Shown here piece after piece: positions 2 through 15,312 of a DNA stretch of 19,087 nt. Each line of letters opens with the position of its first letter. Positions within the stretch are counted from its first letter, which is position 1. Below the pieces are notes generated by a model. It saw nothing but the letters and a program-made list of their open reading frames with translations. It had not been told where the DNA came from and did no database searches. The position numbers and the translations under genes are program-made. Location: contig JAEOSV010000047.1 in NCBI GenBank assembly GCA_016840185.1, forward strand, positions 1-19,087, in the 5' to 3' direction. This DNA is from Candidatus Hermodarchaeota archaeon. Lineage in GTDB: Archaea; Asgardarchaeota; Hermodarchaeia; Hermodarchaeales; Hermodarchaeaceae.

Positions 2-88
2 GAAGAAGCCGAATTACTGCTCAACATGTTGATTCGTGCTTATGATCCCTGTATTTCGTGTTCTGTACATTATATACACACCATTTAG
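2..88 (+). CDS. Group 3 [NiFe]-hydrogenase large subunit, C-terminal end (partial)
   Basis: The frame starting at base 2 is open from the window edge to a TAG at 86-88 and encodes 28 residues ending in LIRAYDPCISCSVHYIHTI. The stretch RAYDPCxSCxxH is the C-terminal L2 motif of cytosolic [NiFe]-hydrogenase large subunits of group 3 (MvhA, sulfhydrogenase alpha and relatives). Its two cysteines bind the Ni-Fe centre, and the His is normally the last residue kept after maturation proteolysis. Here five residues (YIHTI) follow the His, which would be a very short removable tail. The rest of the gene lies outside the window, so subgroup 3b versus 3c cannot be decided. This cytosolic enzyme sits directly upstream of the membrane hydrogenase operon on the same strand. 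Confidence 0.85.
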   Translation, partial: EEAELLLNMLIRAYDPCISCSVHYIHTI

Positions 89-170: not shown

Positions 171-638
171 ATGTCGAAGGATTTCATGAATCAAAAAGTG
201 TTGATTTACAATCCTGAGAAGTGCTCAGGCTGCTACTATTGTATGATCGCCTGTTCTTTTTATCACAATGAAGAAGCAGATTTAGATAAGGCCTACCTTC
301 GGGTGTACCCCCAGGATGAAGAGTTCACCGGTTTTGTGAACGCCCATTGCACGCATTGTGAATATCCAATTTGTGAAGCTGCGTGCCCAACTGAACCTAA
401 GGCGATTACAAAAGACCCGAACAGCGGATTTGTGATAATTGATCGAATGAGGTGTATCGGTTGTAAATCATGTAATCTTGCCTGCCCCCTATCTATCCCG
501 ATTTTTGAAAAACCGTTTGGGATTAGCAATAAGTGCAATTTCTGTGATGGTGACCCTCGTTGCGCAAAATATTGCAGTACTGGAGCGTTAGAGGTCGTAA
601 CACGAAAGGAAGTCAAGGAGACTGGGTCGAATGAGTGA
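171..638 (+). CDS. Four-cluster [4Fe-4S] ferredoxin subunit (HycB/CooF-like)
   Basis: A 155-residue soluble electron-transfer protein of the family that serves as the ferredoxin subunit of formate hydrogenlyase, CO dehydrogenase-linked hydrogenases and DMSO-reductase-type enzymes. It has 16 cluster cysteines in four groups: C18/21/24/28, C60/63/68/72, C95/98/101/105 and C122/125/131/135. The spacings CxxCxxCxxxC and CxxCx4CxxxC are those of HycB/CooF proteins and predict four [4Fe-4S] clusters. It is first in the operon and overlaps the next gene by 8 bases. The ATG at 171 has GGAAG at 163-167. An alternative ATG at 186 follows GAAGGA at 176-181, so the true N-terminus is uncertain by five residues. 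Inferred role: an electron wire between the HdrB side and the membrane hydrogenase, perhaps replacing the missing iron-sulfur domain of HdrC. Confidence 0.9.
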   Translation: MSKDFMNQKVLIYNPEKCSGCYYCMIACSFYHNEEADLDKAYLRVYPQDEEFTGFVNAHCTHCEYPICEAACPTEPKAITKDPNSGFVIIDRMRCIGCKSCNLACPLSIPIFEKPFGISNKCNFCDGDPRCAKYCSTGALEVVTRKEVKETGSNE

Positions 639-912
639 CGATGAGATTGTCTTGTACCCCTGGAGAAAAAAAGTAAAAACACTTCCAGAGTCATTCAAAA
701 ATCCAATTATGAATATTATCCGTATGGGTCATATCCCGAAATTAGCAGTGACTCGAGAAAGAGTTCGGGAAGCGCTAGGGATCAATCGTAAGCCCCCAAC
801 CGCGTATCAGGACCCGAATGCCCAAAAGGAAGTTGAAGAGCTGGTCAAGGAAACTGACCTTTACGATAAGGCAACATGGGATGCGAGAGAAGAGGAGGAG
901 AGCGATCGATGA
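631..912 (+). CDS. HdrC C-terminal-domain-like protein lacking the iron-sulfur domain
   Basis: A 93-residue protein without a single cysteine. Residues about 24-80 (NPIMNIIRMGHIPKL, then REALGINRKPPTAYQDP and a helical KEVEELVKETDLYD) resemble from memory the segment that follows the two [4Fe-4S] motifs in heterodisulfide reductase subunit HdrC, where a helix and a proline-rich turn contact HdrB. The normal N-terminal ferredoxin domain of HdrC (roughly 100 residues) is absent. The start ATG at 631 has AAGGAG at 615-620. The gene overlaps the ferredoxin upstream by 8 bases and HdrB downstream by an ATGA, so translation of all three is probably coupled. The natural inference is a split HdrC whose clusters are supplied by the upstream ferredoxin. 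The alternative is an unrelated small adaptor; the HdrC assignment rests on motif memory and gene order. Confidence 0.6.
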   Translation: MSDDEIVLYPWRKKVKTLPESFKNPIMNIIRMGHIPKLAVTRERVREALGINRKPPTAYQDPNAQKEVEELVKETDLYDKATWDAREEEESDR

Positions 913-1784
913 CAAGAAGCTATGCACTGTTTCTGGGTTGCTATATTCCATCGATGCAGCCTTTTGCAGAAGCCTCGCTCCGCCGAATAGCTCCACCTCT
1001 GAAAATGAAGCTCATCGATATAGAGGGAGCAACATGCTGTCCTGTTCCCGAAATTGTTCGGTTAGCAGATCATGATGCCTGGTTATACGTCTCCGCACGA
1101 AACCTTGCATTGGCTGAATCCTTAGGTGAAGATATCCTAGCTGTGTGTAACGGATGTTGGGAAACCCTGTATGAAGCAAGGGAGACCATTGTGAACGATA
1201 CCCAATTGATGAATGAAGTGAATTCTCATCTAAGCCTTCTTGATAAGACCTTTGAAGGGAAAGTGAAAGTCAAACATTTTCTCGAGGTTATGGTCGAGGA
1301 CATCGGGTTAGAATCATTGAAGGCCGCGATTAAGCAGCCTTTGTCAAAACTGAACGTTGCAGTGCAGTATGGCTGTAAATTATATAAAAGTCCAGATAGC
1401 AAATTCATTTCGTATTTTGATAGTATCATTGAATCCCTCGGCGTAAACGCTATCGACTATGGCGCTGAAAAAATCTGTTGCGGTTTCCCTTTGTCATTAT
1501 ATTCCCTTGATGAGGCGATGGAGGAACGAGCCAAGTTCAAGCTAGACAAGATGCAAGCGGCGAAAGTGGATTGCATGGTTACTGCTTGTCCCGGTTGCTT
1601 TGACGTCTTAGAGAAAGCCCAATTGTTGTTGAAACGACAGGGGCTTCAATATGAGATTCCGATGCTGAGTCTAACAGAATTAATCGCCTTAAGTTTCGGT
1701 TTCAAACCCCACGAAATTGGGGTTGATAAGCATCGGGTGAAAACAAAAACCCTAATTTCGAAACTAGGGTTGGGGGGAAACTAA
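909..1784 (+). CDS. hdrB: Heterodisulfide reductase subunit B homologue (HdrB)
   Basis: A 291-residue protein with two complete CCG (cysteine-rich) domains: C11-x31-C43-C44-x35-C80-xx-C83 and C156-x33-C190-C191-x35-C227-xx-C230. In HdrB of methanogens these residues bind two noncubane [4Fe-4S] clusters that cleave the CoM-S-S-CoB disulfide, so the redox centre appears intact. The His usual after the second GC (GCH) is Lys here. The start was placed at the ATG at 909, which overlaps the preceding TGA as ATGA and follows GAGGAGGAG at 892-900; a longer reading from 876 has no comparable signal. The real substrate in this organism is unknown, since no coenzyme M/B genes are visible. No HdrA (the flavin bifurcation subunit) is in the window. 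Confidence 0.92.
   Translation: MTRSYALFLGCYIPSMQPFAEASLRRIAPPLKMKLIDIEGATCCPVPEIVRLADHDAWLYVSARNLALAESLGEDILAVCNGCWETLYEARETIVNDTQLMNEVNSHLSLLDKTFEGKVKVKHFLEVMVEDIGLESLKAAIKQPLSKLNVAVQYGCKLYKSPDSKFISYFDSIIESLGVNAIDYGAEKICCGFPLSLYSLDEAMEERAKFKLDKMQAAKVDCMVTACPGCFDVLEKAQLLLKRQGLQYEIPMLSLTELIALSFGFKPHEIGVDKHRVKTKTLISKLGLGGN
1748..1771. promoter_or_regulatory. Near-perfect 24-bp palindrome at the hdrB/hydrogenase junction
   Basis: AACCCTA at 1748-1754 and TAGGGTT at 1765-1771 are perfectly inverted, and the interior TTTCGAAA is itself palindromic, so 11 of 12 symmetric positions pair; the mismatch is 1755/1764. It lies inside the last codons of hdrB, and the G-rich Shine-Dalgarno region of the next gene (1772-1780) follows directly. 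As RNA it would form a strong hairpin between the Hdr module and the hydrogenase module. It could be an mRNA processing or attenuation site, or a protein-binding site. Confidence 0.5.
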
Positions 1785-2216
1785 ATGGGAAGAATGGACG
1801 AAATCAGAGAAAAATTGGAAGCGTTGTTAAAGGACGATTACTTGGACGAAAAGTCGGATCGATTCTCTCGATTTTATGTGCGGTCGAAACCCACCCATAT
1901 TAGACCTATCACTCAGCTACTTGTCGAGGAGTTGGAGGGGCGACTGGTGGCAATATCTGCTAATGATGAAGGGATTCAGGGCTTTGATCTTGTGTATCAT
2001 TTTGATTTTTCTCATCAAGAAAAGGGATTACACGTCGCTTTGAAGATTCGACTCCCTCGGAAAAAACCGAAAATTGATTCCATAACAGAAATTGCCTGGT
2101 CAGCAAATTGGGCAGAACGGGAACTGATGGACTTGATGGGAATCGTATTCGAAGGTCACCCCGATCCCCGGAAATTATTCCTCCCCTATGCTTGGCCTTC
2201 AGAGGAAGTGGGTTAG
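1785..2216 (+). CDS. Group 4 hydrogenase NuoC-like (30 kDa) subunit
   Basis: A 143-residue homologue of the complex I 30-kDa subunit (NuoC, EchD, N-terminal part of HycE). The diagnostic block is at residues 107-133: ANWAERELMDLMGI followed by FEGHPDPRKLFL, matching the family pattern W.ERE..D..GI.F.GHPD.R. The protein docks against the catalytic large subunit on the cytoplasmic arm and carries no cofactor. The ATG directly follows the hdrB stop, with a G-rich GGGGGGAAA motif at 1772-1780 as ribosome binding site. As in Ech hydrogenase, and unlike formate hydrogenlyase, the C and D parts are separate genes. Confidence 0.88.
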   Translation: MGRMDEIREKLEALLKDDYLDEKSDRFSRFYVRSKPTHIRPITQLLVEELEGRLVAISANDEGIQGFDLVYHFDFSHQEKGLHVALKIRLPRKKPKIDSITEIAWSANWAERELMDLMGIVFEGHPDPRKLFLPYAWPSEEVG

Positions 2217-3437
2217 TTGACAAGAAAGAAAAAAACAGAGAAGAAAACCATTCCAATGCAAATTGATGAGGTCACAGCGCCGGAATACGTTATACCGTTG
2301 GGACCCTTTCACCCAGCTCTCCTTGAGGGAGAATACTTCAAATTAAAAGTTGAAGGGGAAAAAGTTCTAGAAGTGGATTTGAAACTAGGTTACAACTATC
2401 GGGGCATTATGAAACTGGCTGAATCCCGAAGCTATCACCAGAATATGTACCTCTTCGAACGTGTATGTGGAATCTGTAGCGCAGCCCATACGACTGCTTA
2501 CTCGACAACCGTTGAAATGCTCGGTGGAATTGAACTCCCTGATAGAGCCCGCTACATTCGAACCCTCATAGCCGAATTGGAACGAATCCATAGCCACCTG
2601 TTATGGGCAGGTGTTGGTATGGAACTGATTGGTTTCAAAACGTTGTTCATGCTAATTTGGCGAGATCGAGAACATGTTCTCGACGTACTCGAGACCATTT
2701 CAGGGAATCGCCAGCATTATGCGATGAACACCATTGGTGGAGTTCGCAAAGATATTGAGAAGGAAGCAATCCCCAAAATTGAAGAAAAGCTCAAAGTGTT
2801 GCATAAGGCCACGGAAACTGTGACAAAGGCGGTGCTAGAGGATGGAGGGATACGAGCACGAACCAAAGGTATTGGAACACTTGACAAAGAAATCGCCAAA
2901 CAGATTTGTGTGGTTGGCCCGGTTGCTCGCGCAGCTGGAATGAAAATCGATGTCCGAAAGGATGATCCCTATGCCGCCTATGATGAGATTCCCTTCGATG
3001 TCATAACTGCAAATGACGGAGATATATTTTCCATGGCACTAGTTCGGCTAGGGGAACTTGTGGAATCAGTAAAAATCAGCCAATATTGCTTAGATAAACT
3101 CAAAACGACCGGAGGACCAATTCAAGCAGAAGTGAAAGAATTTCCTCCAGGCGAAGCAATTGGTCGAGTCGAGGCACCCCGGGGTGAACTGATGTACTAC
3201 CTTGTCTCGAATGGAACTAATAACCCGGAAAGAGCTCGTGTTCGAACACCCTCATATTTGAACGATTACGCACTGCTCTTCATGCTTCCTGGCGAATCGT
3301 TGGCAGATGTACCCATTACTGTAGCTTCAGTCGATCCTTGCATGGCATGTACTGATCGCATGTGTACAGTCGTTGATCAAGATACAAGGGCTCAAAAAAC
3401 AGGTTCTATCCGAGAGCTATTCAAGAATCCAAGATGA
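2217..3437 (+). CDS. Group 4 membrane-bound [NiFe]-hydrogenase, catalytic large subunit
   Basis: A 406-residue NuoD/EchE/HycE-type protein. Both metal-binding motifs are intact: L1 ERVCGICSAAH with C84 and C87, and L2 DPCMACTDR with C375 and C378. All four Ni-Fe ligands are therefore present, so this is a true hydrogenase rather than a Nuo/Fpo-type subunit that has lost the site. The last L2 position is Arg381 instead of His, common in group 4. Twenty-five residues follow R381 and probably form the C-terminal peptide removed by a maturation protease, but no protease gene is seen nearby. The start is TTG at 2217, immediately after the previous TAG, with AGAGGAAG at 2201-2208; an ATG at 2256 is an alternative and would remove a Lys-rich N-terminus. 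It should evolve or oxidise H2 on the cytoplasmic side. Confidence 0.93.
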   Translation: MTRKKKTEKKTIPMQIDEVTAPEYVIPLGPFHPALLEGEYFKLKVEGEKVLEVDLKLGYNYRGIMKLAESRSYHQNMYLFERVCGICSAAHTTAYSTTVEMLGGIELPDRARYIRTLIAELERIHSHLLWAGVGMELIGFKTLFMLIWRDREHVLDVLETISGNRQHYAMNTIGGVRKDIEKEAIPKIEEKLKVLHKATETVTKAVLEDGGIRARTKGIGTLDKEIAKQICVVGPVARAAGMKIDVRKDDPYAAYDEIPFDVITANDGDIFSMALVRLGELVESVKISQYCLDKLKTTGGPIQAEVKEFPPGEAIGRVEAPRGELMYYLVSNGTNNPERARVRTPSYLNDYALLFMLPGESLADVPITVASVDPCMACTDRMCTVVDQDTRAQKTGSIRELFKNPR

Positions 3438-3444
3438 AGTAACA

Positions 3445-5292
3445 ATGATAGATCCAGCAATCATCGTCATCGTTCTATACATTGCTGCTGCCTTCAGTCT
3501 TCTGGGCAATAAAATTCGACGAGTAAATGATGTTGTAGCACTTCTTGCAACAGGCTTTGCTCTTTTGGCAGTTGTTCTGAATTTCTTTTACCTACCACTT
3601 TGGATCAGCATCCCGGGTGTATTCGGATTTGCCTTCACAATCAATGGGTATACGAATTTAATCGCACTAATTGCTACATTCATCGGTGTTCTCGTCGTTG
3701 TATACTCCGTCAAATATGTGGAGCAGCGAGGGAGTTCCCATTGTCTTTTCGTGTTATTGACTATTGGTAGTCTTTTAGGCATGGCGTATAGTTGGAACCT
3801 TTTCTGGGTATTCCTGTTTGCTGAAGTTGCTACTATAACCTCGACCTTCCTCATTGCGCATCACATGAAATCCACTTCGTTTGAAGGAGGATTGAAGTAT
3901 CTTAGTATCCAAATCTTTGCCTCACTCTTTGTGGTCGTAGGTTTGGGATTGATTTACCAAGAGACCCTTGCTGCAGGCTATTCGGGGATTGGCGCCTTTG
4001 GCATTGATTTTCTGCTTTCTTCCGGACTGTTAGTGGGGTTCATCGGGAAATTTTCACTTTTTCTGATTTTTCTGGGGTTTCTTGTTAAAGTGCCCTCATT
4101 CCCCATTCATACATGGCTTCCTGATGCCTCTACCGTTGCCCCCGCTTCCATTAGCACCTTGTTACATGCAATGATGATCAAAGTTGCAGGGATGCCTGCA
4201 TTTCTTATTCTCCTGCTTTTCCATTCTCTTTTTGTCAGTATTAACTTCTGGTTGGTTATTTGCAGTCTTGGTATTCTGACGATGCTTGTCTGTGTAATCA
4301 TTGCTTTCGCTCAAAATGATTTGAAGCGACTCCTTGCCTTTGATAGTGTCAGCCAGATGGGTTACGTGATCCTCGGGATGGGAATTGGTGGACTTGCTAT
4401 CAGCTTCTATGACATTACCACAGACCCGGTTTGGCTGGTTGTAGCTGCAGGTGGAATCACAGCGGGACTCTTTCATCTTCTGAATCATAGTCTTTTCAAA
4501 TCAGTTCTGTTCTTCAGCGCAGGCGCAATAGAACATGAAACAGGAACCCGTGATATCAACAAGCTAGGCGGATTGCTCCAAGCCATGCCGAGGACTGGAT
4601 ATGTGATGCTAATTGGTTCTCTGGCCATTGCTGGGGTTCCGCTCCTGAACGGATTCATTAGCAAATGGATGGTGTATAACGCGTGCATTTCAGCAGGACA
4701 GCCTGTCTTTGCATTAATCGCCATTTTTACTTCTGCACTTACTTTTGCAGTATTTCTCCGAATGTTGTGCTCAGTCTTCCTTGGAAATGCCCCTGGGACC
4801 TATCAAGGAGTTCACGCCGCACCAAGAAGTATGTTCGGCCCTTCATTGCTTTTAGCTGGAGGATGTATTCTCTTTGGAGTCATTCCCCAAATTGCCATCT
4901 TGTTTCTGATTTTTCCTGCAACCACAGTTCTCCTCCCCGTGGCAATTACACCTCCAGCTAATCCACTGTTTTGGGTTTCATTGGATCTGTTCTTACTTGG
5001 AACCTTACTCATCATCGGGTTAATCATCGGCTATCTCCTCTACAGATTCAAGTGGGGAGTCACCCCCACCGATGCAGAAGATAAGACAATGCCTTTCACA
5101 GGTGGCACACTCAAAGAGCCCTATCTAAAAGTCGAAGAAGCTAGGCCCGCTTCTACTGTGTTTTCTTACCCATTCCGATCCTTGCTGAATGGTGTGCGAA
5201 AATCGCATACAGGACTTGTTAACATGTATATCCTGTGGTTCGTCCTGTTTGCCTTACTAATGCTTTCCTTGCTCATCGTGGGGTGGATATAA
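3445..5292 (+). CDS. Group 4 hydrogenase NuoL/antiporter-like membrane subunit
   Basis: A 615-residue polytopic protein of the proton-conducting Nuo/Mrp antiporter family (NuoL, EchA, HycC, MbhH). Key channel residues are in place: E127 in FAEVATITS, K215 in the signature KVPSFPIHTWLPDAST, K246 in HAMMIKVAG, K352 in NHSLFKSVLFF and K407 in NGFISKWMV. A hydrophilic stretch (about residues 545-580) precedes a last transmembrane helix, consistent with the long NuoL-type C-terminus. The start is ATG at 3445, seven bases after the large-subunit stop; a TTG at 3373 would overlap that gene by 65 bases and lacks support. It is the only antiporter-like subunit in the operon, so coupling would be through one NuoL-type channel plus the NuoH region. 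Whether the ion is H+ or Na+ cannot be read from this sequence. Confidence 0.92.
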   Translation: MIDPAIIVIVLYIAAAFSLLGNKIRRVNDVVALLATGFALLAVVLNFFYLPLWISIPGVFGFAFTINGYTNLIALIATFIGVLVVVYSVKYVEQRGSSHCLFVLLTIGSLLGMAYSWNLFWVFLFAEVATITSTFLIAHHMKSTSFEGGLKYLSIQIFASLFVVVGLGLIYQETLAAGYSGIGAFGIDFLLSSGLLVGFIGKFSLFLIFLGFLVKVPSFPIHTWLPDASTVAPASISTLLHAMMIKVAGMPAFLILLLFHSLFVSINFWLVICSLGILTMLVCVIIAFAQNDLKRLLAFDSVSQMGYVILGMGIGGLAISFYDITTDPVWLVVAAGGITAGLFHLLNHSLFKSVLFFSAGAIEHETGTRDINKLGGLLQAMPRTGYVMLIGSLAIAGVPLLNGFISKWMVYNACISAGQPVFALIAIFTSALTFAVFLRMLCSVFLGNAPGTYQGVHAAPRSMFGPSLLLAGGCILFGVIPQIAILFLIFPATTVLLPVAITPPANPLFWVSLDLFLLGTLLIIGLIIGYLLYRFKWGVTPTDAEDKTMPFTGGTLKEPYLKVEEARPASTVFSYPFRSLLNGVRKSHTGLVNMYILWFVLFALLMLSLLIVGWI

Positions 5293-6269
5293 TGGCTACA
5301 TTCTTTGATTATCTTCTCATCATCGGCTTGTACTTCGTAGCCATTGGCCTTGCCTTTTTCTTCAGCTGGGGAGCCGGATGGGTATTTCGGAAATTATCCG
5401 CCCGGTTACAGGCCAGAAGAGGGCCACCTTCGTATCAGCCGATTGCGGACATCATCAAACTCTTTGGAAAGGAACGGTTTATTCCAAGATTCGCAAACAA
5501 ATTCCTTTACATCCTTTCTCCCTTGCTGGCGTTAAGTGCGATTCTCATTTTGAGTTTCATGATTCCACCAGGTACTCCCCTTTGGCCAGGTCCTCTTGCC
5601 TTTGATCTCATTGTCATCTTGTACTTTTCAGTTATGTTCTCTCTTGCTTTTGTCATCGCAGGGTGGGCCTCAGGTTCCCCTTGGGGGAAAATTGGAGCGA
5701 GTCGAGAAGTTGCCATGATTCTCAGTGTAGAGCTTCCTCTCGCCATTGCCTTACTCATTCCATCGTTAGCCTTAGCTCGTGTGGGTTCTGGTTTTTCGTT
5801 ATCCATCACTGATGTCATTACAGCTCAGGAAGGCATTTTCATCTGGTTTCTCCCCAATTGGTTTCTATTTCATTATCCTCTTGCAGCTGTAGCTCTTTTC
5901 TTGGCGTTACTTACAAAATCATGGATGCGCCCATTTGGAGATATTCCAGAAGCAGAACAAGAAATCTTTGCAGGACCGTTAACAGAGTATGGAGGGCCAC
6001 TCCTTGGAATCTTTGAATTAGCTCGCCTCTTTCGATTTTACGTCTTCACTGCCCTCTTCGTGGACCTTTACCTGGGTGGAGGTGATGGCTTCATATTTCC
6101 AATTAATCTGCTTGTCTTTCTGGTAAAGTGCCTAGTCATTGTCATTATCATGACTATCATTCATGTCGCAAGTGCAAGATACCGGATAAGTCATGTATTC
6201 AAGTGGTTTTTGACAGTGTGTTTAGCATTTGCTGTCTTTTCCTTAATTCGCGTATTGGTGGGTTTCTGA
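5292..6269 (+). CDS. Group 4 hydrogenase NuoH-like membrane subunit
   Basis: A 325-residue polytopic protein homologous to NuoH/EchB/HycD/MbhM, which anchors the hydrophilic arm to the membrane and forms part of the ion path. Family blocks visible: QARRGPPSYQPIADIIKLFG with following KE (40-61), GASREVAMILSVELPL (135-150), and the cytoplasmic loop GDIPEAEQEIFAGPLTEYGG (216-235) rich in conserved acidic residues. About eight hydrophobic segments are seen. The ATG at 5292 shares its A with the preceding stop (TAATG), so this gene and the NuoL-like gene are translationally coupled. A reading from 5235 adds 19 residues that overlap the previous gene and is not supported. Confidence 0.92.
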   Translation: MATFFDYLLIIGLYFVAIGLAFFFSWGAGWVFRKLSARLQARRGPPSYQPIADIIKLFGKERFIPRFANKFLYILSPLLALSAILILSFMIPPGTPLWPGPLAFDLIVILYFSVMFSLAFVIAGWASGSPWGKIGASREVAMILSVELPLAIALLIPSLALARVGSGFSLSITDVITAQEGIFIWFLPNWFLFHYPLAAVALFLALLTKSWMRPFGDIPEAEQEIFAGPLTEYGGPLLGIFELARLFRFYVFTALFVDLYLGGGDGFIFPINLLVFLVKCLVIVIIMTIIHVASARYRISHVFKWFLTVCLAFAVFSLIRVLVGF

Positions 6270-6270
6270 A

Positions 6271-6837
6271 ATGGTGAAAATAACAGCAATCAAAGAAGCA
6301 TTGAAAGCCTTATTCAAACCAGCCACCACCAAATATCCACACGGTCCCCCCAGCCATGTCCCTGAAGGACTCCGTGGGCTCCCGCAATTTAAGGACGATA
6401 AATGCATTGGGTGTGGGGCATGTGCTGAATGCTGTTCAGCAAATGCAATCTCAATAACGGACAAAGGTGATACTCGAATAGTGAGTATCTTTTACCCAAG
6501 ATGCATCTTTTGCGGTCGCTGTGAGGACATTTGTCCAGAAGATGGAATTGCCCTTTCTGAGGAGTTCGAACTAGCTACTAGCGACATGAAGGAAGCAGAA
6601 GTCTCGATTAAGTTCACTTTAGTGAAATGTCAAGAATGTGGTTCAGCCATCTCAACAAAGGAACATCTAGCAAAAATCAAAGAGCGAATCATGAAAAACA
6701 TCGATCAAGCAATTGCTGACGACGTGGCTGAAGACCTTGCCAAATACGAAAATCTTTGTGTAGAATGCAGAAGAAAACTCAGTTACCAGCTGAATACGCA
6801 TACTCAGAAATATTATGCTAGGGGGTGGGAGAAATGA
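6271..6837 (+). CDS. Group 4 hydrogenase 2x[4Fe-4S] subunit (NuoI/HycF-like) with C-terminal zinc-ribbon-like tail
   Basis: A 188-residue peripheral subunit. Two ferredoxin motifs, C45/48/51/55 and C78/81/84/88 (both CxxCxxCxxxC), predict two [4Fe-4S] clusters that relay electrons to the NuoB-like subunit. A C-terminal extension has a second pair of CxxC motifs: C120xxC123 (CQECGSAIS) and C163xxC166 (CVECRRK), separated by a 39-residue charged helical stretch. The same layout occurs in HycF/HyfH-type subunits and probably binds a metal structurally. The ATG is one base after the NuoH-like stop. The gene ends in an ATGA overlap with the next one. Confidence 0.9.
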   Translation: MVKITAIKEALKALFKPATTKYPHGPPSHVPEGLRGLPQFKDDKCIGCGACAECCSANAISITDKGDTRIVSIFYPRCIFCGRCEDICPEDGIALSEEFELATSDMKEAEVSIKFTLVKCQECGSAISTKEHLAKIKERIMKNIDQAIADDVAEDLAKYENLCVECRRKLSYQLNTHTQKYYARGWEK

Positions 6838-7409
6838 ATCCGATTATTGGACTGCTCATACTCATTCTTGCAGTTGTCATCATTGAGGTTGACGATTTCC
6901 GATTTGTAACAATTCTTCTTGGAGTTCTTGGTGGGGCAATAACACTTGGTGCGATTCTTGAAGGAGCTTTTGTCGAAGTACTTCCACTCGCTATTTATTC
7001 AATCGTATTCCTTCCTATGGCACTTTTCATTACCACTGTTCGCACCAAACGAACTGAAGAGCCTCCATTAATTCATGGGGTTCCATCCATTGGTCTAGTA
7101 TTGATATTAGTGATAATTGCCTATGTCATCTCCCTTTACCTTCTTGGGGTATCCGGGATTGAATGGCCATTAGTTGTAGTCGGAATCTTTGGACTCATCG
7201 TGAAAACGGATTTACGGAAGAGTGTAGCCAGTTTATCGATCTTGGTATATTCAGTCCATTTGTTCGTACCGGGAGTTGATTTCATCATCGAGGGAATGTT
7301 GATGCTCACTACAGGAATTCTCATTCTTGCTTTGCTAGTACTTAGTCACCGATTCTTTATCCTGAAGGGTTCCATGTCAACGAGGGATCTAAAGGATTTG
7401 AGGTTTTGA
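6834..7409 (+). CDS. Hydrogenase small membrane subunit, probable NuoJ-NuoK-like fusion
   Basis: A 191-residue protein with about six hydrophobic segments. The N-terminal half (about 20-70: DDFRFVTILLGVLGG, then AFVEVLPLAIYSIVFLPMALF) follows the pattern of NuoJ/MbhE-type subunits (A.F.A..Q.LVY.GAI.VLFLF). The C-terminal half (about 113-148: GIFGLIVKTDLRKSVASLS followed by ILVYSVHLF) aligns residue by residue with NuoK/MrpC/HyfE (GL.GL..RR.L...IGLE). At the position of the NuoK membrane glutamate there is S135, as in MrpC-type proteins. I infer a J+K fusion filling the place of two small subunits. The start ATG at 6834 overlaps the previous stop and follows GGGGGTGGGAGA; a GTG at 6825 is less likely. 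The membrane character is certain, the NuoJ/NuoK assignment moderate. Confidence 0.65.
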   Translation: MNPIIGLLILILAVVIIEVDDFRFVTILLGVLGGAITLGAILEGAFVEVLPLAIYSIVFLPMALFITTVRTKRTEEPPLIHGVPSIGLVLILVIIAYVISLYLLGVSGIEWPLVVVGIFGLIVKTDLRKSVASLSILVYSVHLFVPGVDFIIEGMLMLTTGILILALLVLSHRFFILKGSMSTRDLKDLRF

Positions 7410-7420
7410 GGTGAAAAATA

Positions 7421-7870
7421 ATGGGGTTAATGAGTTGGGCTCGTGGCAAATCCCCCTGGATTGCAGTGCTTCATGCAGGGGGGTGTAACAATTGTGATAT
7501 CGAGGTGTTGGATGTTTTGACGCCCCGATTTGATGTTGAAAGATTGGGTGTCTTATGGAAACAGAATCCTCGCCATGCGGATATACTCATCACGAACGGC
7601 TGTGTATCTAAACATTCTAAGGTCTTCATCAAACGGATTTATGATCAGATGCTCGCCCCGAAGAAAGTTATTGCTTTGGGATCCTGTGCGTGTACTGGGG
7701 GCATCTATGTTGAAGGAGAGGGGAGAAACGTTGAAGAAACCCATACGATTATTGGCGGGGTTGACAAAGCTATCCCTGTTGATGTGTATGTTCCGGGTTG
7801 CCCGCCTAAGCCAGAAGCGATAATCCAAGGAGTAGCCATAGCTATTGAGAAGCTTAAAGAAGGCGATTGA
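7421..7870 (+). CDS. Group 4 hydrogenase small subunit (NuoB/EchC/HycG-like)
   Basis: A 149-residue subunit carrying the [4Fe-4S] cluster next to the Ni-Fe site. Ligands are C22 and C25 (GGCNNCDIE), C89 (GSCACTGGIY) and C127 (VPGCPPKPEAI), the usual NuoB/EchC/HycG set. It receives electrons from the NuoI-like subunit and passes them to the large subunit. The ATG at 7421 is preceded by a near-ideal ribosome site GAGGTGA at 7408-7414 with a 6-base gap, which decides against the internal ATG at 7430. It is the last gene of the operon; no Hyp maturation or endopeptidase gene follows, and the next gene is convergent. Confidence 0.93.
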   Translation: MGLMSWARGKSPWIAVLHAGGCNNCDIEVLDVLTPRFDVERLGVLWKQNPRHADILITNGCVSKHSKVFIKRIYDQMLAPKKVIALGSCACTGGIYVEGEGRNVEETHTIIGGVDKAIPVDVYVPGCPPKPEAIIQGVAIAIEKLKEGD

Positions 7871-7885
7871 TGAACTGAATTCACT

Positions 7886-9265
7886 CTACTTCTTTTGTTT
7901 TCGTTCTTGTAATCGTTCATAACGCAATGCCAAGATTTGAGCTGCAAGTGTTAAGGGTTCACGAATGGGGGCAACAGGTGGTGCATAGCAGGTTTCTAGG
8001 TCAGCAACTTCTCGGATCGTCATTCTTACTGATAGAGCAGCGCTGAGAATGTTTGTCCTCTGATGGGCACATGGACCAATGACTTGTCCGCCAAGTAATC
8101 GTCCTGTTTCTTTATGTGCTAGAAGTTTGACTGTGACCTCTCCTTCACTGGGGAAATACTCAGCGGTTCGGCTTCCCTTGAATTTCCCAGCAAGAATTGG
8201 GAGATCTGTTTTTTCAGCTGCCACCCGAGTAGGTCCAACTCCAGCAATCTCAAGACCGAAAAGATGAGTTGTCCGTGCTAATACTACGCCTCCTAATTCA
8301 GCTTTTCCTCCTGCAGCATTGATCCCAGCGACTTCACCTTGACGTAGTGCGATACTACCAAGCCCTGAAACGATACTCTGTCCTGTCACCAAATCATCAT
8401 GTTCGGCACAGTCACCTGCAGCGTATACATTGGGATGATTTGTTTTCATGTATTTATCCACTCGAATCCCACCACGCTCGCCAAGGGTTATACCTGCGTC
8501 CTGGGCTAGAGTGGTGTTTGCCTGGACACCGGTTGCGACTACTACAATATCGGCAGGGATTTTTTCTTCAGTATTGGTTTCGCGATCTGCAACAAGAACG
8601 TGGGTTTTTGTGACCTTCTTTGCCGCTGTTCCGAGTTTAACAAAAAGTCCATCGGCTTCCATTTTCTCTTGGACGATGGTTCCCATCTCATTATCAATCA
8701 TCGCAGGTAAAACCTGGGGAAGAAATTCAATCACGGTGATTTTCAAGCCTAGAGTGTGTAGGGCTTCGGCGGTTTCGAGTCCAACGAGTCCTGCACCAAT
8801 TATGGCAGCAGTTTTCCCTTTCTTCGCTACAGCTTGGAGTCGTTTTGCATCCTCGAAGGTATGCAGGCGATGCACATGAGAAGCATCTAAGCCTTCGATT
8901 GGAGGTGTGCTGGGTCGAGCCCCTGTTGCAAAGACCAATGCATCATAAGTGAGAGAGTCAGTACTTCCACCATTGGTTTTGATGGTTACAGTGTTTGTTT
9001 TCAAGTCGACTTTGGTGGCTTCTGTATTGAGACGTAAATCAGCACGCACCAAGTTTCCCGTATAGAAAGATTCTGGGTGGATGATGACGTCTTTCATGTT
9101 GGGAATAACACGGTTGACGGTATAGGGGAGTCCACATCGACTATATTCTGGCAAAGATTCATCTTGAAGGATTGTGATAGTTGCATCTCGGCTTGTCTTA
9201 CGGGCCATTAAAGTCGTAGCGGCACCAGCAGTACCACAACCAATTACAACGATATGTCGAGTCAT
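7886..9265 (-). CDS. FAD-dependent pyridine nucleotide-disulfide oxidoreductase (CoA-disulfide reductase / NADH oxidase family)
   Basis: A 459-residue flavoprotein with an N-terminal FAD dinucleotide fold (GCGTAG at 9-14), the single redox cysteine C44 in YSRCGLPY, a central NAD(P)H fold (IIGAGLVGLETAEAL), the FAD-binding YAAGDCAEH block and a C-terminal dimerisation domain with YAPPVAPIREP. One cysteine rather than a CxxC pair places it with CoA-disulfide reductases, NADH oxidases, NADH peroxidases and NAD(P)H:sulfur reductases. The exact substrate (CoA disulfide, polysulfide, O2) cannot be told. It converges on the hydrogenase operon with a 15-base gap. No clear Shine-Dalgarno precedes the ATG, but a TATA-like box sits about 25 bases upstream, so the mRNA may be leaderless. 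A role in thiol/sulfur redox beside HdrB is attractive but unproven. Confidence 0.9.
   Translation of the reverse strand: MTRHIVVIGCGTAGAATTLMARKTSRDATITILQDESLPEYSRCGLPYTVNRVIPNMKDVIIHPESFYTGNLVRADLRLNTEATKVDLKTNTVTIKTNGGSTDSLTYDALVFATGARPSTPPIEGLDASHVHRLHTFEDAKRLQAVAKKGKTAAIIGAGLVGLETAEALHTLGLKITVIEFLPQVLPAMIDNEMGTIVQEKMEADGLFVKLGTAAKKVTKTHVLVADRETNTEEKIPADIVVVATGVQANTTLAQDAGITLGERGGIRVDKYMKTNHPNVYAAGDCAEHDDLVTGQSIVSGLGSIALRQGEVAGINAAGGKAELGGVVLARTTHLFGLEIAGVGPTRVAAEKTDLPILAGKFKGSRTAEYFPSEGEVTVKLLAHKETGRLLGGQVIGPCAHQRTNILSAALSVRMTIREVADLETCYAPPVAPIREPLTLAAQILALRYERLQERKQKK
7889..7908 (+). terminator. T-rich candidate terminator of the hydrogenase operon
   Basis: The + strand is pyrimidine-rich with runs TTCTTTTGTTTTCG just past the last hydrogenase stop. 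Archaeal RNA polymerase commonly stops at such T tracts without a hairpin. It lies inside the 3' coding end of the convergent oxidoreductase (lysine codons on the other strand), so the composition may simply be coding. Confidence 0.35.
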
Positions 9266-11009: not shown

Positions 11010-12041
11010 TTATCCCTTCGTCCAGCTGTCAAGACTTTGCTGACGTTGACCCTCTTTGGCTTTCTGAAGCCGGTCAACCACATTGGTTACACGGGTTTCT
11101 GAAAATCCCCGTTCCTGACACAGGAACGTAATTAGCCCTTCTCTGTCAATGGGCTGCGTAGTGAGGTCGTATTCATCTGTGATTGGATGATCCAAGAAAA
11201 GGCGACGGATTTTATGATAGTTCGGGGGGAGCTGTTCAAGAATCTTACTAGGCAGATTCTCTAGACTGTTATTTTCCTTGATGAGTTTTAACGCGGTTTT
11301 CGGACCCACTTGAGGAACGCCTTTGTTGAAGTCAGTTCCAATTAGGAGTGCCATGTCAACAAGTTGTTCGCGGTTAATGCCGTTGTCTGAAAAGACTTTG
11401 TGCAGATCAATGAGTTCGGGTTGTAGTGGCACACTGGTTCCCTTACTCGGTAAGCGTTTACGACCGGTAAGTGTCAAATAGCGTAACAACCGGGGTGACC
11501 CGAAGAGTAGAGTGTCAAAATCACGGCTCGCTGTGGCCCAGGCATCACCCCGTTGCACCATGTAAGCTGCTTGAGCTTCTCCTTCCCCTGGAGCCTGTAT
11601 GTATGGAATTCCCAGATAAGTAAGTACTTGTTGGGCCTCCTCTGCCATTGGGCGCGTAAGGCGCCCGGTTCCGACGGCCTTCGACCACGCTGTTTTCATA
11701 TCACCCTTGGCTACTGCTTCTTCGTATTCCCGTTCGGCTCTTTTTCGTTGTTCACGACGTTTAGCGATTTCATCTGATTTGAGATCCGGGGGTTTCCCAT
11801 CAAAGACAAAAATGAGTTTCAAATCGAAATCGGTGATTAACCGAGTTGTGCGATAGAGAAGACCAACGAGATGGGAGGTGGTTCGTCCTTTTCGATCCTT
11901 GAGTGGAATACCGTCTGGGGTTCTGATTAGGGCTAGGAATTGGTGTAATTGATTGGCAGCATCAACCGCAAATGATCGTCCACGCAATTCCTCTAGTGTA
12001 AGTGCTTGAGGTGTAATTAGGGGCGCCAGTTTAACACCCAA
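11010..12041 (-). CDS. fen: Flap endonuclease 1 (FEN-1/XPG family)
   Basis: A 343-residue structure-specific nuclease that removes 5' flaps in Okazaki-fragment maturation and repair. All seven metal-binding acidic residues are present: D27, D81, E153, E155 (GEGEAQ), D174, D176 (SRDFD) and D237 (GTDFN). The start is TTG at 12041. It is chosen because FEN-1 proteins begin MGV(K/N)L, whose N-terminus sits near the active site, and because GGGAGG precedes it by 9 bases. The C-terminus ends RQQSLDSWTKG, a PCNA-interacting (PIP) box Q334-xx-L337-xx-W340. The second aromatic position, usually Phe, is Thr341. A helix-two-turn-helix region follows the catalytic core (GVPQVGPKTALKLI). Confidence 0.96.
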   Translation of the reverse strand: MGVKLAPLITPQALTLEELRGRSFAVDAANQLHQFLALIRTPDGIPLKDRKGRTTSHLVGLLYRTTRLITDFDLKLIFVFDGKPPDLKSDEIAKRREQRKRAEREYEEAVAKGDMKTAWSKAVGTGRLTRPMAEEAQQVLTYLGIPYIQAPGEGEAQAAYMVQRGDAWATASRDFDTLLFGSPRLLRYLTLTGRKRLPSKGTSVPLQPELIDLHKVFSDNGINREQLVDMALLIGTDFNKGVPQVGPKTALKLIKENNSLENLPSKILEQLPPNYHKIRRLFLDHPITDEYDLTTQPIDREGLITFLCQERGFSETRVTNVVDRLQKAKEGQRQQSLDSWTKG

Positions 12042-12245: not shown

Positions 12246-12584
12246 TTAGTTTGAGGGCGCAATTATACCGCCGATTAGGACAAGGAGTCCTGCAATGAAC
12301 CCACCAAAGATGAGTCCAAGAATACCAGTGACAATAAGACCAGTCTTATGTGCACTAGGATCATGACGCCAGCGGAACCAGAGAATGAAGAAGATGATTC
12401 CAAAGATACTAATCAGGAGATAGAACGCGATGGAAATGAAAAAGACCATCATGATTAGTGGGTCCCAAATGGGTAAGAACAAGAGGAATGTGAATGCAAT
12501 CATTGCGAGACCAATTATCCAGAAGATTAACTGAAGCCAGGCGCCAATAGTTACGAGGGTACGTGCTGTTCCTTCATCTGCCAT
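12246..12584 (-). CDS. Small integral membrane protein, tandem paralogue 1
   Basis: A 112-residue hydrophobic protein I do not recognise. It begins MADEGTARTL, then has a hydrophobic segment at about 13-39, a long one at about 42-70, a charged loop RWRHDPSAHKTG (71-82) and a last segment at about 83-109, so three or four membrane spans. It shares its N-terminus, the DPSAHKTGLIVTGILGL block and the C-terminal GLLVLI.GIIAP with the neighbouring paralogue. A strong ribosome site, TAGGAGG, lies 10 bases before the ATG. A second ATG 3 bases after that site opens a five-codon frame overlapping the start. The gene has its own promoter-like leader and terminator, so it is probably a single-gene transcript. 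Confidence 0.8.
   Translation of the reverse strand: MADEGTARTLVTIGAWLQLIFWIIGLAMIAFTFLLFLPIWDPLIMMVFFISIAFYLLISIFGIIFFILWFRWRHDPSAHKTGLIVTGILGLIFGGFIAGLLVLIGGIIAPSN
12322..12362. repeat. 41-bp coding block identical to 12922-12962
   Basis: This stretch within the first paralogue, encoding the DPSAHKTGLIVTG region, is base-for-base identical to 12922-12962 in the second, including silent positions. Flanking coding sequence differs at many silent sites. Confidence 0.85.
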
Positions 12585-12836: not shown

Positions 12837-13166
12837 TTATGCGGCTTCGCCAGGAGCAATAATTCCTGCGATGAGCACAAGTAGGCCGGAAATCCAGCCA
12901 AAGGCTAAGAAGAGCCCGAGGATACCAGTGACAATAAGACCAGTCTTATGTGCACTAGGATCGCTTTTCCATTGGAACCAAAGGATGAAGAATATAATTC
13001 CAAAGATGGAAAACACTACGTAGATTCCAGCTACGATCAGGAAGATCAGGGGATCGGGAAAGAGGATGAACATGAATCCAATGAAACCCAGACCAACAAT
13101 GAAGAAGATTAGCTGGAGCCAGGCTGCAATCGTGGTAAGTGTTCGGGCTGTTCCTTCATCTGCCAT
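12837..13166 (-). CDS. Small integral membrane protein, tandem paralogue 2
   Basis: A 109-residue paralogue of the neighbouring protein, family not recognised. Hydrophobic segments lie at about 13-36, 38-64 and 76-104, with the polar loop QWKSDPSAHKTG (65-76) between the last two. The shared segments are MADEGTARTL, AWLQLIF, SIFGIIFFILWF, DPSAHKTGLIVTGILGL and GLLVLI.GIIAP, while the region around residues 28-50 has diverged and is a few residues shorter. It has the same TAGGAGG ribosome site and leader as paralogue 1. Together they look like a tandem duplication giving two independently transcribed small membrane proteins; Ser/His/Lys in the loop may be functionally important because they are invariant between the copies. 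Confidence 0.8.
   Translation of the reverse strand: MADEGTARTLTTIAAWLQLIFFIVGLGFIGFMFILFPDPLIFLIVAGIYVVFSIFGIIFFILWFQWKSDPSAHKTGLIVTGILGLFLAFGWISGLLVLIAGIIAPGEAA
12922..12962. repeat. 41-bp coding block identical to 12322-12362
   Basis: Second copy of the perfectly conserved internal coding block of the two tandem membrane protein genes. Confidence 0.85.
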
Positions 13167-14754: not shown

Positions 14755-15312
14755 GTGAGTAGAATTCCTGATGAAGAGAAACGCTTTGATGCTGTCTATA
14801 AGCTAGTGACGCTTGGCGAAGCGGCTGTTGGTAAAACAAGTCTTGTGAATAAATACGTGACCGGTAAATTCGACCGTGATTATCACCGTACTCTCGGAAT
14901 TGACATCAGTACGTATGATGCAAAAATTGATCCTCAACTATTCAAGTTACTCATTTGGGACCTTGCCGGGCAAGATATTTTTCGAGACTTACGAACACGA
15001 TATTGCCAGGGTGCTTCTGGAGGTGTGTTAGTCTTCGATTTAACACGTCCCCAAACCTTGGAAACCATCCCCAAATGGGTTGAAGCCTTCCGTGAAGCAG
15101 TTGGACCGGAACCACTTCTGATTATGCTTGGCAACAAGGCAGACTTGGATAGTAAACGCAAGATTACTCGTGCTCAAGGCGAGAGTATTGCAAAGCAATT
15201 GGGTCTGTTTCAATATGAAGAGACATCAGCGAAAACAGGAGACCAAGTTACAACCGCGTTCAATACTCTAGCCAAAATGATTTACGAATCTCATGCTAAG
15301 CGTCGTGATTGA
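14755..15312 (+). CDS. Ras/Rab-family small GTPase
   Basis: A 185-residue GTPase with all five G motifs: G1 GEAAVGKTS (21-29), switch-I threonine T46 (TLGID), G3 WDLAGQD (68-74) with catalytic Q73, G4 NKAD (127-130) and G5 ETSAKTG (156-162). This is the canonical eukaryote-like Ras superfamily order with WDxAGQ as in Rab/Ras proteins. Such GTPases are expanded in Asgard archaea and are the main taxonomic clue in this window. The C-terminus (ESHAKRRD) has no cysteine for prenylation, so membrane attachment, if any, must use another route. The start is GTG at 14755 with GGAGGT at 14743-14748. No GAP, GEF or roadblock gene is adjacent. Confidence 0.93.
   Translation: MSRIPDEEKRFDAVYKLVTLGEAAVGKTSLVNKYVTGKFDRDYHRTLGIDISTYDAKIDPQLFKLLIWDLAGQDIFRDLRTRYCQGASGGVLVFDLTRPQTLETIPKWVEAFREAVGPEPLLIMLGNKADLDSKRKITRAQGESIAKQLGLFQYEETSAKTGDQVTTAFNTLAKMIYESHAKRRD

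What the first reader, a model, noticed from the sequence alone, without database searches (positions are those of the whole stretch)
171..7870. HdrB, a split HdrC and a HycB-like ferredoxin built into a group 4 [NiFe]-hydrogenase operon
Ten tightly spaced, mostly overlapping genes join a disulfide-reductase module (HdrB with both CCG motifs) to a complete, catalytically competent membrane hydrogenase (all Ni-Fe ligands C84/C87/C375/C378). In the well-known cases HdrB works with HdrA and a cytosolic Mvh hydrogenase or a cytochrome-linked HdrD; here no HdrA is present and the partner is an Ech/Hyc-type ion-pumping complex. This would be a direct thiol/disulfide to H2 coupling at the membrane (H2 production from a dithiol, or disulfide reduction with H2). 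I cannot say whether this arrangement has been described.
Basis: partly seen in the sequence, partly recalled or inferred. Interest (0 to 1): 0.85.

Follow-up and report, generated by a model that had tools for sequence, protein, structure and literature searches.

The report
Disulfide-linked membrane hydrogenase in Asgard archaeon
This Asgard archaeon carries an operon that seems to dock a disulfide-reducing protein onto a membrane hydrogenase through an adaptor protein, so that hydrogen gas and thiol chemistry could be coupled to ion pumping; the general idea is already known from other archaea, while the adaptor was not found described in the papers searched.

Summary
Ten genes at 171-7870 encode a HycB-like ferredoxin, a Cys-free HdrC-like protein, HdrB with ten cluster cysteines, and a group 4 [NiFe]-hydrogenase with intact C84/C87/C375/C378. 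The nearest relatives are Hermodarchaeia (Asgard). Nine cassette HdrBs form one clade apart from 14 other Asgard HdrBs.

The 'split HdrC' is better read as a chimera: a NuoC-like C-terminal tail (YP-x-RK) plus the HdrC C-terminal domain, natively fused to NuoC in one genome. That is the best evidence that HdrB is docked on the hydrogenase.

The general arrangement is not new: HdrB-linked group 4 hydrogenases (Ehd, Ehe, Drh, Ehg) were proposed in 2022, and the window's large subunit groups with a Methanomethylicia sequence. Not found in the open papers searched: this Asgard cassette and the adaptor. Whether Ehd shares the ferredoxin is unknown. Substrate, direction and ion pumping are inferred. 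Verdict: new variant of a known kind.

The parts
2..85 (+). C-terminus of a group 3b-like [NiFe]-hydrogenase large subunit (ShyA/HydA-like), cut by the window edge; neighbour, not part of the complex
   Evidence: complete in L001-L004 as last gene of a ShyBCDA-like set
171..638 (+). HycB/HydN-family ferredoxin, 16 Cys (four [4Fe-4S] expected): proposed bridge between HdrB and the HycF-like subunit
   Evidence: present with hdrC' and hdrB in 12 of 12 places
631..912 (+). HdrC': Cys-free adaptor, NuoC-tail-like motif YP-x-RK followed by the HdrC C-terminal domain
909..1784 (+). HdrB, two CCG domains, ten cluster Cys (ATG at 909; the listed ORF start 876 is upstream)
1785..2216 (+). NuoC/HycE-N-like subunit lacking the C-terminal PLRK tail
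   Evidence: PF00329 positions 3-110 of 124
2217..3437 (+). [quoted passage not shown]
3445..5292 (+). NuoL/M/MrpD-like ion-translocating subunit (ATG at 3445; ORF opens at 3373)
   Evidence: PF00361 E 8e-47
5292..6269 (+). NuoH/HycD-like membrane subunit (ATG at 5292; ORF opens at 5235)
   Evidence: PF00146 E 1.6e-61
6271..6837 (+). NuoI/HycF-like subunit, two 4Fe-4S motifs plus a further CxxC...CxxC
   Evidence: NF009053 FHL Fe-S subunit E 6.4e-36, below its cut-off; 7z0s_F E 4.4e-21
6834..7409 (+). Membrane subunit, possibly NuoK/HyfE-like (no direct family match; GTG start at 6825 or ATG at 6834)
   Evidence: homologue L047:650-1267 (24% identity, E 1e-5) matches PF00420 NuoK E 8.9e-6, just under its cut-off
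7421..7870 (+). NuoB/HycG-like small subunit
   Evidence: PF01058 E 9.7e-29; NF005012 above cut-off
7886..9265 (-). CoA-disulfide-reductase-like flavoprotein, convergent neighbour, conserved in L001-L003; not claimed as a subunit
   Evidence: TIGR03385 301.5 bits, below its cut-off 578.8

Best explanation
A membrane-bound H2:disulfide oxidoreductase built on a formate-hydrogenlyase-like chassis. HdrB replaces the formate dehydrogenase as the substrate module. Electrons would pass between HdrB (two noncubane clusters), the HycB-like ferredoxin (four clusters), the HycF/NuoI-like subunit, the NuoB-like subunit and the [NiFe] site. HdrC' would hold HdrB on the hydrogenase arm by supplying both the NuoC tail and the HdrC domain. 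SHOWN: the gene set, cofactor ligands, conserved cassette, one HdrB clade, chimeric adaptor sequence and a natural NuoC-HdrC' fusion. INFERRED: one complex, electron path, docking, ion pumping by the NuoL/M- and NuoH-like subunits, and the favoured direction (H2 reduces a disulfide and ions are exported). The disulfide is probably not CoM-S-S-CoB; lipoyl-GcvH or a CoA (per)disulfide are the leading guesses.
For: Gene order and ligands; cassette in 11 of 227 Asgard genomes, 12 places; ten best HdrBs of the phylum all within 2.5 kb of a group 4 large subunit; nine cassette HdrBs one clade, 99/95; HdrC' matches HdrC residues 110-177, 97.7% probability, E 2.5e-12 for one profile against one; NuoC ends where HdrC' begins, and G006 has them fused; ComA 0 of 10 genomes; GcvH within 3 kb of a non-cassette HdrB in 8 of 10.
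Against: No biochemistry. HdrC' and the HdrC part of the fusion fold poorly alone (mean pLDDT 60; block means 38-62), so no interface was modelled. G007/G008 cassettes show no NuoL/M-like subunit in the fetched stretch, so pumping may not be universal. GcvH is not in the window, and GDC-P is present in 10 of 10 genomes, so GcvH has an ordinary role too. ComA absence is weak evidence: its control does not ring in Methanosarcina acetivorans, which makes CoM by another route (recalled).
Confidence: 0.66

Rival explanations
1. Same complex, opposite duty: the ion gradient drives dithiol oxidation to H2, disposing of thiols made by an HdrABC-Mvh complex or supplying H2 to partners.
For: Reversibility of group 4 hydrogenases (established knowledge); HdrCB with HdrA-like and Vhu/Mvh-like genes in G001 (L057); other Asgards are read as H2 producers (PMC9723677 passages).
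Against: Uphill: H+/H2 (-414 mV) lies below lipoyl (about -290 mV) and CoM-S-S-CoB (about -140 mV), values recalled. No test of direction was possible.
Confidence: 0.15
2. An ordinary ferredoxin-dependent ion-pumping hydrogenase (Mbh/Ech-like); HdrB, HdrC' and the ferredoxin are co-transcribed but form a separate soluble enzyme.
For: Large subunit closest to Mbh and HycE among solved proteins; soluble ferredoxin could enter through the HycB- or HycF-like subunit; PMC11291895 reads Asgard group 4 enzymes as ferredoxin-oxidising (passages).
Against: Cassette kept through four different gene orders; NuoC-HdrC' fusion and tail transfer; cassette HdrBs one clade whose branching resembles that of the large subunits (no formal test).
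Confidence: 0.1
3. A sulfane-sulfur or persulfide reductase: HdrB reduces polysulfide or CoA persulfide, with the upstream sulfhydrogenase and the CoA-disulfide-reductase-like flavoprotein as partners.
For: ShyBCDA-like genes upstream in 4 of 4 Hermodarchaeal loci and CoADR-like downstream in the 3 of 4 whose contig reaches there (families from L001 and the window only, all below cut-off); CoADR-like beside GcvH and HdrCB in L069-L071.
Against: G070 has the cassette without either neighbour; the four Ni-Fe Cys are intact.
Confidence: 0.09

Closest known systems
Ehd / Ehd-like complexes (Methanomethylicia, Bathyarchaeia; PMC9723716)
   Same: Group 4 [NiFe]-hydrogenase with HdrB and HdrC genes and an antiporter-like subunit; the window large subunit groups with a Methanomethylicia one (P0056, 64% identity; 21-row clade 100/99).
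   Different: Asgard host without ComA match (0 of 10 relatives); HdrC reduced to a Cys-free chimera. Whether Ehd has the HycB-like ferredoxin or this adaptor could not be checked (figure not held, no context for P0056).
Ehe (Culexarchaeia), Drh (Methanocellales), Ehg (Nezhaarchaeia) (PMC9723716)
   Same: HdrB-linked group 4 hydrogenases; Drh is said to lack an antiporter subunit, as G007/G008 seem to here.
   Different: No SdhA-, CdhA-, FdhF-, GcvH- or HdrA-like gene among the ten ORFs of the window operon.
E. coli formate hydrogenlyase (FHL-1, 7z0s)
   Same: HycB-, HycF-, HycG-, HycE- and HycD-like parts.
   Different: HdrB/HdrC' instead of FdhF; NuoC- and NuoD-like parts are separate genes.
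MvhADG-HdrABC (5odc)
   Same: HdrB best solved match, E 2.2e-57.
   Different: No HdrA in the window; membrane group 4 hydrogenase instead of Mvh.
Freyarchaeia/Atabeyarchaeia group 4 hydrogenase block (PMC11291895)
   Same: Asgard complex-I-like group 4 hydrogenase with Hdr genes and ATP synthase in one block (passages); G006 here also has V/A-ATPase genes beside the cassette.
   Different: The passages read Hdr as HdrABC with the group 3c enzyme, and ferredoxin as donor of the group 4 enzyme; no HdrB docking is proposed in them.

Membership tests
Group 4 [NiFe]-hydrogenase | Two CxxC Ni-Fe motifs in a NuoD-like large subunit | tested here: met
   C84/C87, C375/C378; RVCGIC and DPCMAC
Group 4 [NiFe]-hydrogenase | NuoB-, NuoC-, NuoH-, NuoI- and NuoL/M-like partners | tested here: met
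Ehd-type HdrB-linked group 4 hydrogenase | HdrB gene inside the hydrogenase cluster | tested here: met
Ehd-type HdrB-linked group 4 hydrogenase | Large subunit inside the Ehd/Ehe/Drh cluster of the 2022 tree | tested here: inconclusive
Ehd-type HdrB-linked group 4 hydrogenase | HdrC as partner | tested here: inconclusive
   Only the HdrC C-terminal domain is present; the form of HdrC in Ehd was not visible
Ehd-type HdrB-linked group 4 hydrogenase | CoM-S-S-CoB reduction | not testable with these tools
   No ComA match in 10 of 10 cassette genomes makes it less likely; other CoM routes were not searched
HdrB (TIGR03288 equivalog) | Score over curated cut-off 345.15 | tested here: not met
   231.6 bits; another HdrB of G001 scores 403.9
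HdrB fold/cluster type | Ten cluster cysteines in two CCG domains | tested here: met
HdrC (TIGR03290) | Two 4Fe-4S motifs and score over 160 | tested here: not met
   No Cys, 27.6 bits
Formate hydrogenlyase | FdhF-type formate dehydrogenase in the cluster | tested here: not met
   None among the 20 window ORFs scanned against Pfam; relatives were not scanned for it
HdrABC-Mvh bifurcating complex | HdrA beside HdrB | tested here: not met
   None among the 20 window ORFs scanned

The most novel reading that the evidence does not exclude
In Asgard archaea a domain-swapped adaptor, made of a complex I NuoC tail plus the HdrC C-terminal domain, plugs HdrB into a formate-hydrogenlyase-type chassis and creates an ion-pumping H2:disulfide oxidoreductase that works outside methanogenesis, with protein-bound lipoate (GcvH) or a CoA disulfide in place of CoM-S-S-CoB; with the adjoining sulfhydrogenase and CoADR-like enzyme it would let the cell turn NAD(P)H/thiol imbalance into an ion gradient through an internal H2 cycle.
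Probability: 0.25. Interest if true: 0.78.

Novelty: new variant of a known kind. Interest (0 to 1): 0.52.

Why it matters
If true, thiol/disulfide chemistry is a direct entry point to a hydrogenase-driven ion pump in the archaeal group nearest to eukaryotes, in cells that seem to lack the methanogen coenzymes. It extends the Ehd idea to Asgards, supplies a mechanical reason (the chimeric adaptor) to believe HdrB is really docked, and gives a short sequence marker by which such complexes can be found. It also shows how complex-I-type arms may exchange catalytic modules.

Tried and rejected
'Split HdrC' as a simple gene split: rejected, because the Fe-S half is missing and the N-terminal motif resembles the NuoC tail. 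Misassembly: rejected, same order in four MAGs of different isolates. Loss of the Ni-Fe site: rejected, four Cys intact.

In the large-subunit tree I labelled as HdrB-linked only the 11 rows with the cassette. G006:C84 (L055) also has an HdrB with full-length HdrC about 3 kb away, divergently transcribed, and was left unlabelled. The P rows have unknown context, so the '7 changes' is not evidence of repeated gain. Most unlabelled loci were seen with only 1.5 kb flanks. The root is at the midpoint. L050 repeats L019. Rows were a choice: 38 of the 120 listed protein hits, 35 locus rows and the window. Five long branches are flagged in the HdrB tree and eight in the other. The HdrB tree has 23 rows and omits the G001/G002 cassette HdrBs (97% and 84% identical to the window) and the cut ones of G069 and G070:C70. 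Gene-order sketches are BLAST matches against the window and a few neighbours, not full annotation; names given by eye were then checked with Pfam for ten proteins.
Full report
What is there. Ten ORFs on the + strand, 171-7870, overlap by up to 8 bases or are at most 11 bases apart if the start codons chosen from the sequence are used. Families: HycB/HydN-family ferredoxin with 16 Cys; a 93-aa Cys-free protein; HdrB; NuoC; a NuoD-like [NiFe] large subunit; NuoL/M; NuoH; a HycF/NuoI-like subunit; an unassigned membrane protein; NuoB. The large subunit carries Cys 84, 87, 375, 378 and is closest to Mbh (6cfw_L) and HycE (7z0s_E) among solved proteins. HdrB has all ten cluster Cys and is closest to 5odc HdrB, but scores below the TIGR03288 cut-off (231.6 against 345.15). 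The ferredoxin's best solved relatives are an aldehyde-oxidoreductase Fe-S subunit and HycB3 of HDCR, FHL HycB coming later. The membrane protein at 6834-7409 is possibly NuoK/HyfE-like, through a weak homologue in L047 that itself lies just under the NuoK cut-off.

Where it comes from. No whole genome is held for the window. A genome-contig scan with the Cys-free protein found four loci, titled Hermodarchaeota (two), Hermodarchaeum yapensis and H03M_Hermod_104. Gene order is the same in all four, L004 being cut inside the large subunit. Upstream of the ferredoxin in all four lies a ShyBCDA/HydBGDA-like set; in L001 the best NCBIfam matches of the four genes are those of NAD(P)-dependent sulfhydrogenases, all under their cut-offs apart from no exception. 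The window begins in its last gene. Downstream, convergent, lies a CoA-disulfide-reductase-like flavoprotein in the three loci that reach so far.

Is it conserved. In 227 Asgard genomes, 137 have a large-subunit relative at E <= 1e-40 and 143 an HdrB relative at E <= 1e-52. The ten best HdrBs (E <= 6.2e-70) belong to G001-G004, G070, G008, G007, G006, G174 and G173; each has a group 4 large subunit within 2.5 kb, that of G070 running off the contig end and continuing on another. Of the next five (G178, G176, G175, G177, G005) four were read, and none has a group 4 large subunit in the stretch: three are HdrC-HdrB near GcvH and a CoADR-like gene, one is beside HdrA- and group 3-hydrogenase-like genes. 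A profile of the adaptor (A4) gives 12 matches in 11 of 227 genomes at E <= 7.3e-25, starting at profile position 1, 2 or 7. 139 of 227 have some match at E <= 0.01; the other listed matches are far weaker (E >= 2.7e-11), start at position 13 or later, and lie in open frames of about 170-344 aa except two of 115 (the list is cut), as expected for the C-terminal part of full-length HdrC. All 12 places hold ferredoxin, HdrC' and HdrB; in G006 a NuoL/M-like gene stands between the ferredoxin and the other two. In 10 of 12 the large subunit is seen too; in the other two (L077, L078) the contig ends inside hdrB. Four architectures occur: the Hermodarchaeal order (G001-G004; G070 alike, without the Shy-like set or the flavoprotein); TM-H-I-B-ferredoxin-HdrC'-HdrB-NuoCD without NuoL/M in the stretch (G007, G008); ferredoxin-HdrC'-HdrB-TM-L/M-NuoCD-H-I-B (G173, G174); and ferredoxin-L/M-NuoC~HdrC'-HdrB-LSU-H-I-NuoK-like-L/M beside V/A-ATPase genes, with no NuoB seen before the contig end (G006).

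The adaptor. HdrC' aligns with residues 110-177 of full-length HdrC (hhalign 97.7%, E 2.5e-12 for a comparison of two profiles, seven against ten sequences), so it is the HdrC C-terminal domain without the Fe-S domain. In front of it stands YP-x-RK; P, R and K are invariant in 28 of 28 sequences. The same motif (YPLRK) ends NuoC in the two group 4 complexes without the cassette that were examined (L055, L073), while NuoC in the cassette complexes stops just before it: five separate NuoCs in A5, and four fused NuoCDs that lack the motif. Pfam Complex1_30kDa is matched to position 110 of 124 in the window NuoC, 118 in the G006 protein, 121 in L055. In G006 NuoC, tail and HdrC domain are one 223-aa protein. 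My reading (inference): the NuoC tail was carried over to HdrC', so the adaptor docks where the NuoC tail docks and presents the HdrC domain to HdrB. Structure models were too weak to test the interface.

Trees. Nine cassette HdrBs form one clade (99/95; 98% of bootstrap trees) against 14 other Asgard HdrBs. In the large-subunit tree all 11 cassette rows fall on one side of a branch (46 rows, 100/99) together with Methanomethylicia and Bathyarchaeia proteins of unknown context; the locus rows without the cassette lie on the other side. Inside it the window belongs to a 21-row clade (100/99) with the Methanomethylicia protein P0056. The order G006 / (Hermod, G070) / (G007, G008, G173, G174) is similar in both trees, which suggests joint inheritance; no formal test was made.

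Mechanism. The electron path HdrB - ferredoxin - HycF-like - NuoB-like - NiFe is inferred from FHL, where HycB bridges FdhF and HycF (recalled). From standard potentials (recalled) H2 to disulfide is the downhill direction, leaving energy for ion export; the reverse would need the gradient. Substrate: ComA has no match in 10 of 10 cassette genomes searched (G069 was not among them); its control rings in M. jannaschii but not in M. acetivorans, which makes CoM otherwise (recalled), so this is weak. PMC8163825 reports no MCR in Hermodarchaeota (passages). Together CoM-S-S-CoB seems unlikely. GcvH occurs in 10 of 10, and in 8 of 10 (G001-G004, G070, G007, G008, G006) one lies within 3 kb of an HdrB that is not the cassette's; of these HdrBs only those of G001 and G070 were tested and passed the TIGR03288 cut-off. 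In G006 the GcvH stands with HdrB, HdrC and a lipoate-ligase-like gene; in G174 one lies 3.6 kb from the cassette HdrB. A lipoate-binding protein, LbpA, is essential in Hdr-like sulfur oxidation (PMC6067878, start of abstract in the listing; its kinship with GcvH is recalled). Against: GDC-P is also present in 10 of 10, so GcvH has a normal job. The substrate remains a guess.

Known or new. [quoted passage not shown] PMC8163825 (passages) lists group 4 hydrogenase, fpo, nuo, hdrDE, hdrABC and mvhADG in Hermodarchaeota; the passages do not link HdrB to the group 4 enzyme. PMC11291895 (passages) describes Asgard group 4 blocks with Hdr and ATP synthase but assigns Hdr to HdrABC-group 3c. PMC9723677, PMC7886697 and PMC9478090 (passages) show no such complex in the passages returned. 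Two papers I looked for, Spang 2019 and Greening 2024 (named from recall), are not held. That the Asgard cassette and the adaptor are undescribed rests on paper searches in the open library only, and on text, not figures. Hence 'new variant of a known kind'.

Noticed in passing
window 2-85: C-terminus of a group 3b-like hydrogenase large subunit; a ShyBCDA-like set stands immediately upstream of the operon in the four related loci.
   Followed up: yes
window 7886-9265 (-): CoA-disulfide-reductase-like flavoprotein (below the family cut-off), convergent with the operon and conserved in L001-L003; a 38% relative stands beside GcvH and HdrCB in L069-L071.
   Followed up: partly
L055:2284-5408 (-): HdrB, full-length HdrC, lipoate-ligase-like and GcvH genes divergent from a second group 4 hydrogenase cluster: reminiscent of the sHdr-LbpA sulfur-oxidation set (recalled).
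   Followed up: partly
L057:1-11109: HdrC-HdrB with 2-oxoacid oxidoreductase, HdrA-like FAD/Fe-S and Vhu/Mvh-like genes; GcvH about 2.5 kb away. GcvH lies within 3 kb of a non-cassette HdrB in 8 of 10 genomes.
   Followed up: partly
L047:2829-4886 (-): hdrB and the large-subunit gene of G006 appear to lie in one frame, parted by a TGA (one search reports a 689-codon open stretch with one TGA); probably chance, but some Asgards are reported to use selenocysteine.
   Followed up: no
L001:10458-10889: NuoC of this MAG has one in-frame stop; assembly error or true defect not decided.
   Followed up: no
P0036, P0039: Large-subunit relatives with an altered second motif (DPCMAW, DTCMAC); P0036 loses a Ni-Fe cysteine.
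   Followed up: no
P0033 versus L017: A large subunit named Odinarchaeota in NCBI sits at zero distance from the Hermod MAG L004/G004 in the tree; the label is probably wrong.
   Followed up: no
L078 (G070:C70): G070 has a second ferredoxin-HdrC'-HdrB cassette, cut by the contig end.
   Followed up: partly
window 12246-12584 and 12837-13166 (-): Two similar short membrane proteins in tandem without Pfam match.
   Followed up: no
window 11010-12041 (-), 14755-15312 (+), 15517-17616 (+), 17672-18982 (-): FEN1/XPG-like nuclease, Ras-family small GTPase, M6-type peptidase and phosphoglycerate-kinase-like protein.
   Followed up: no
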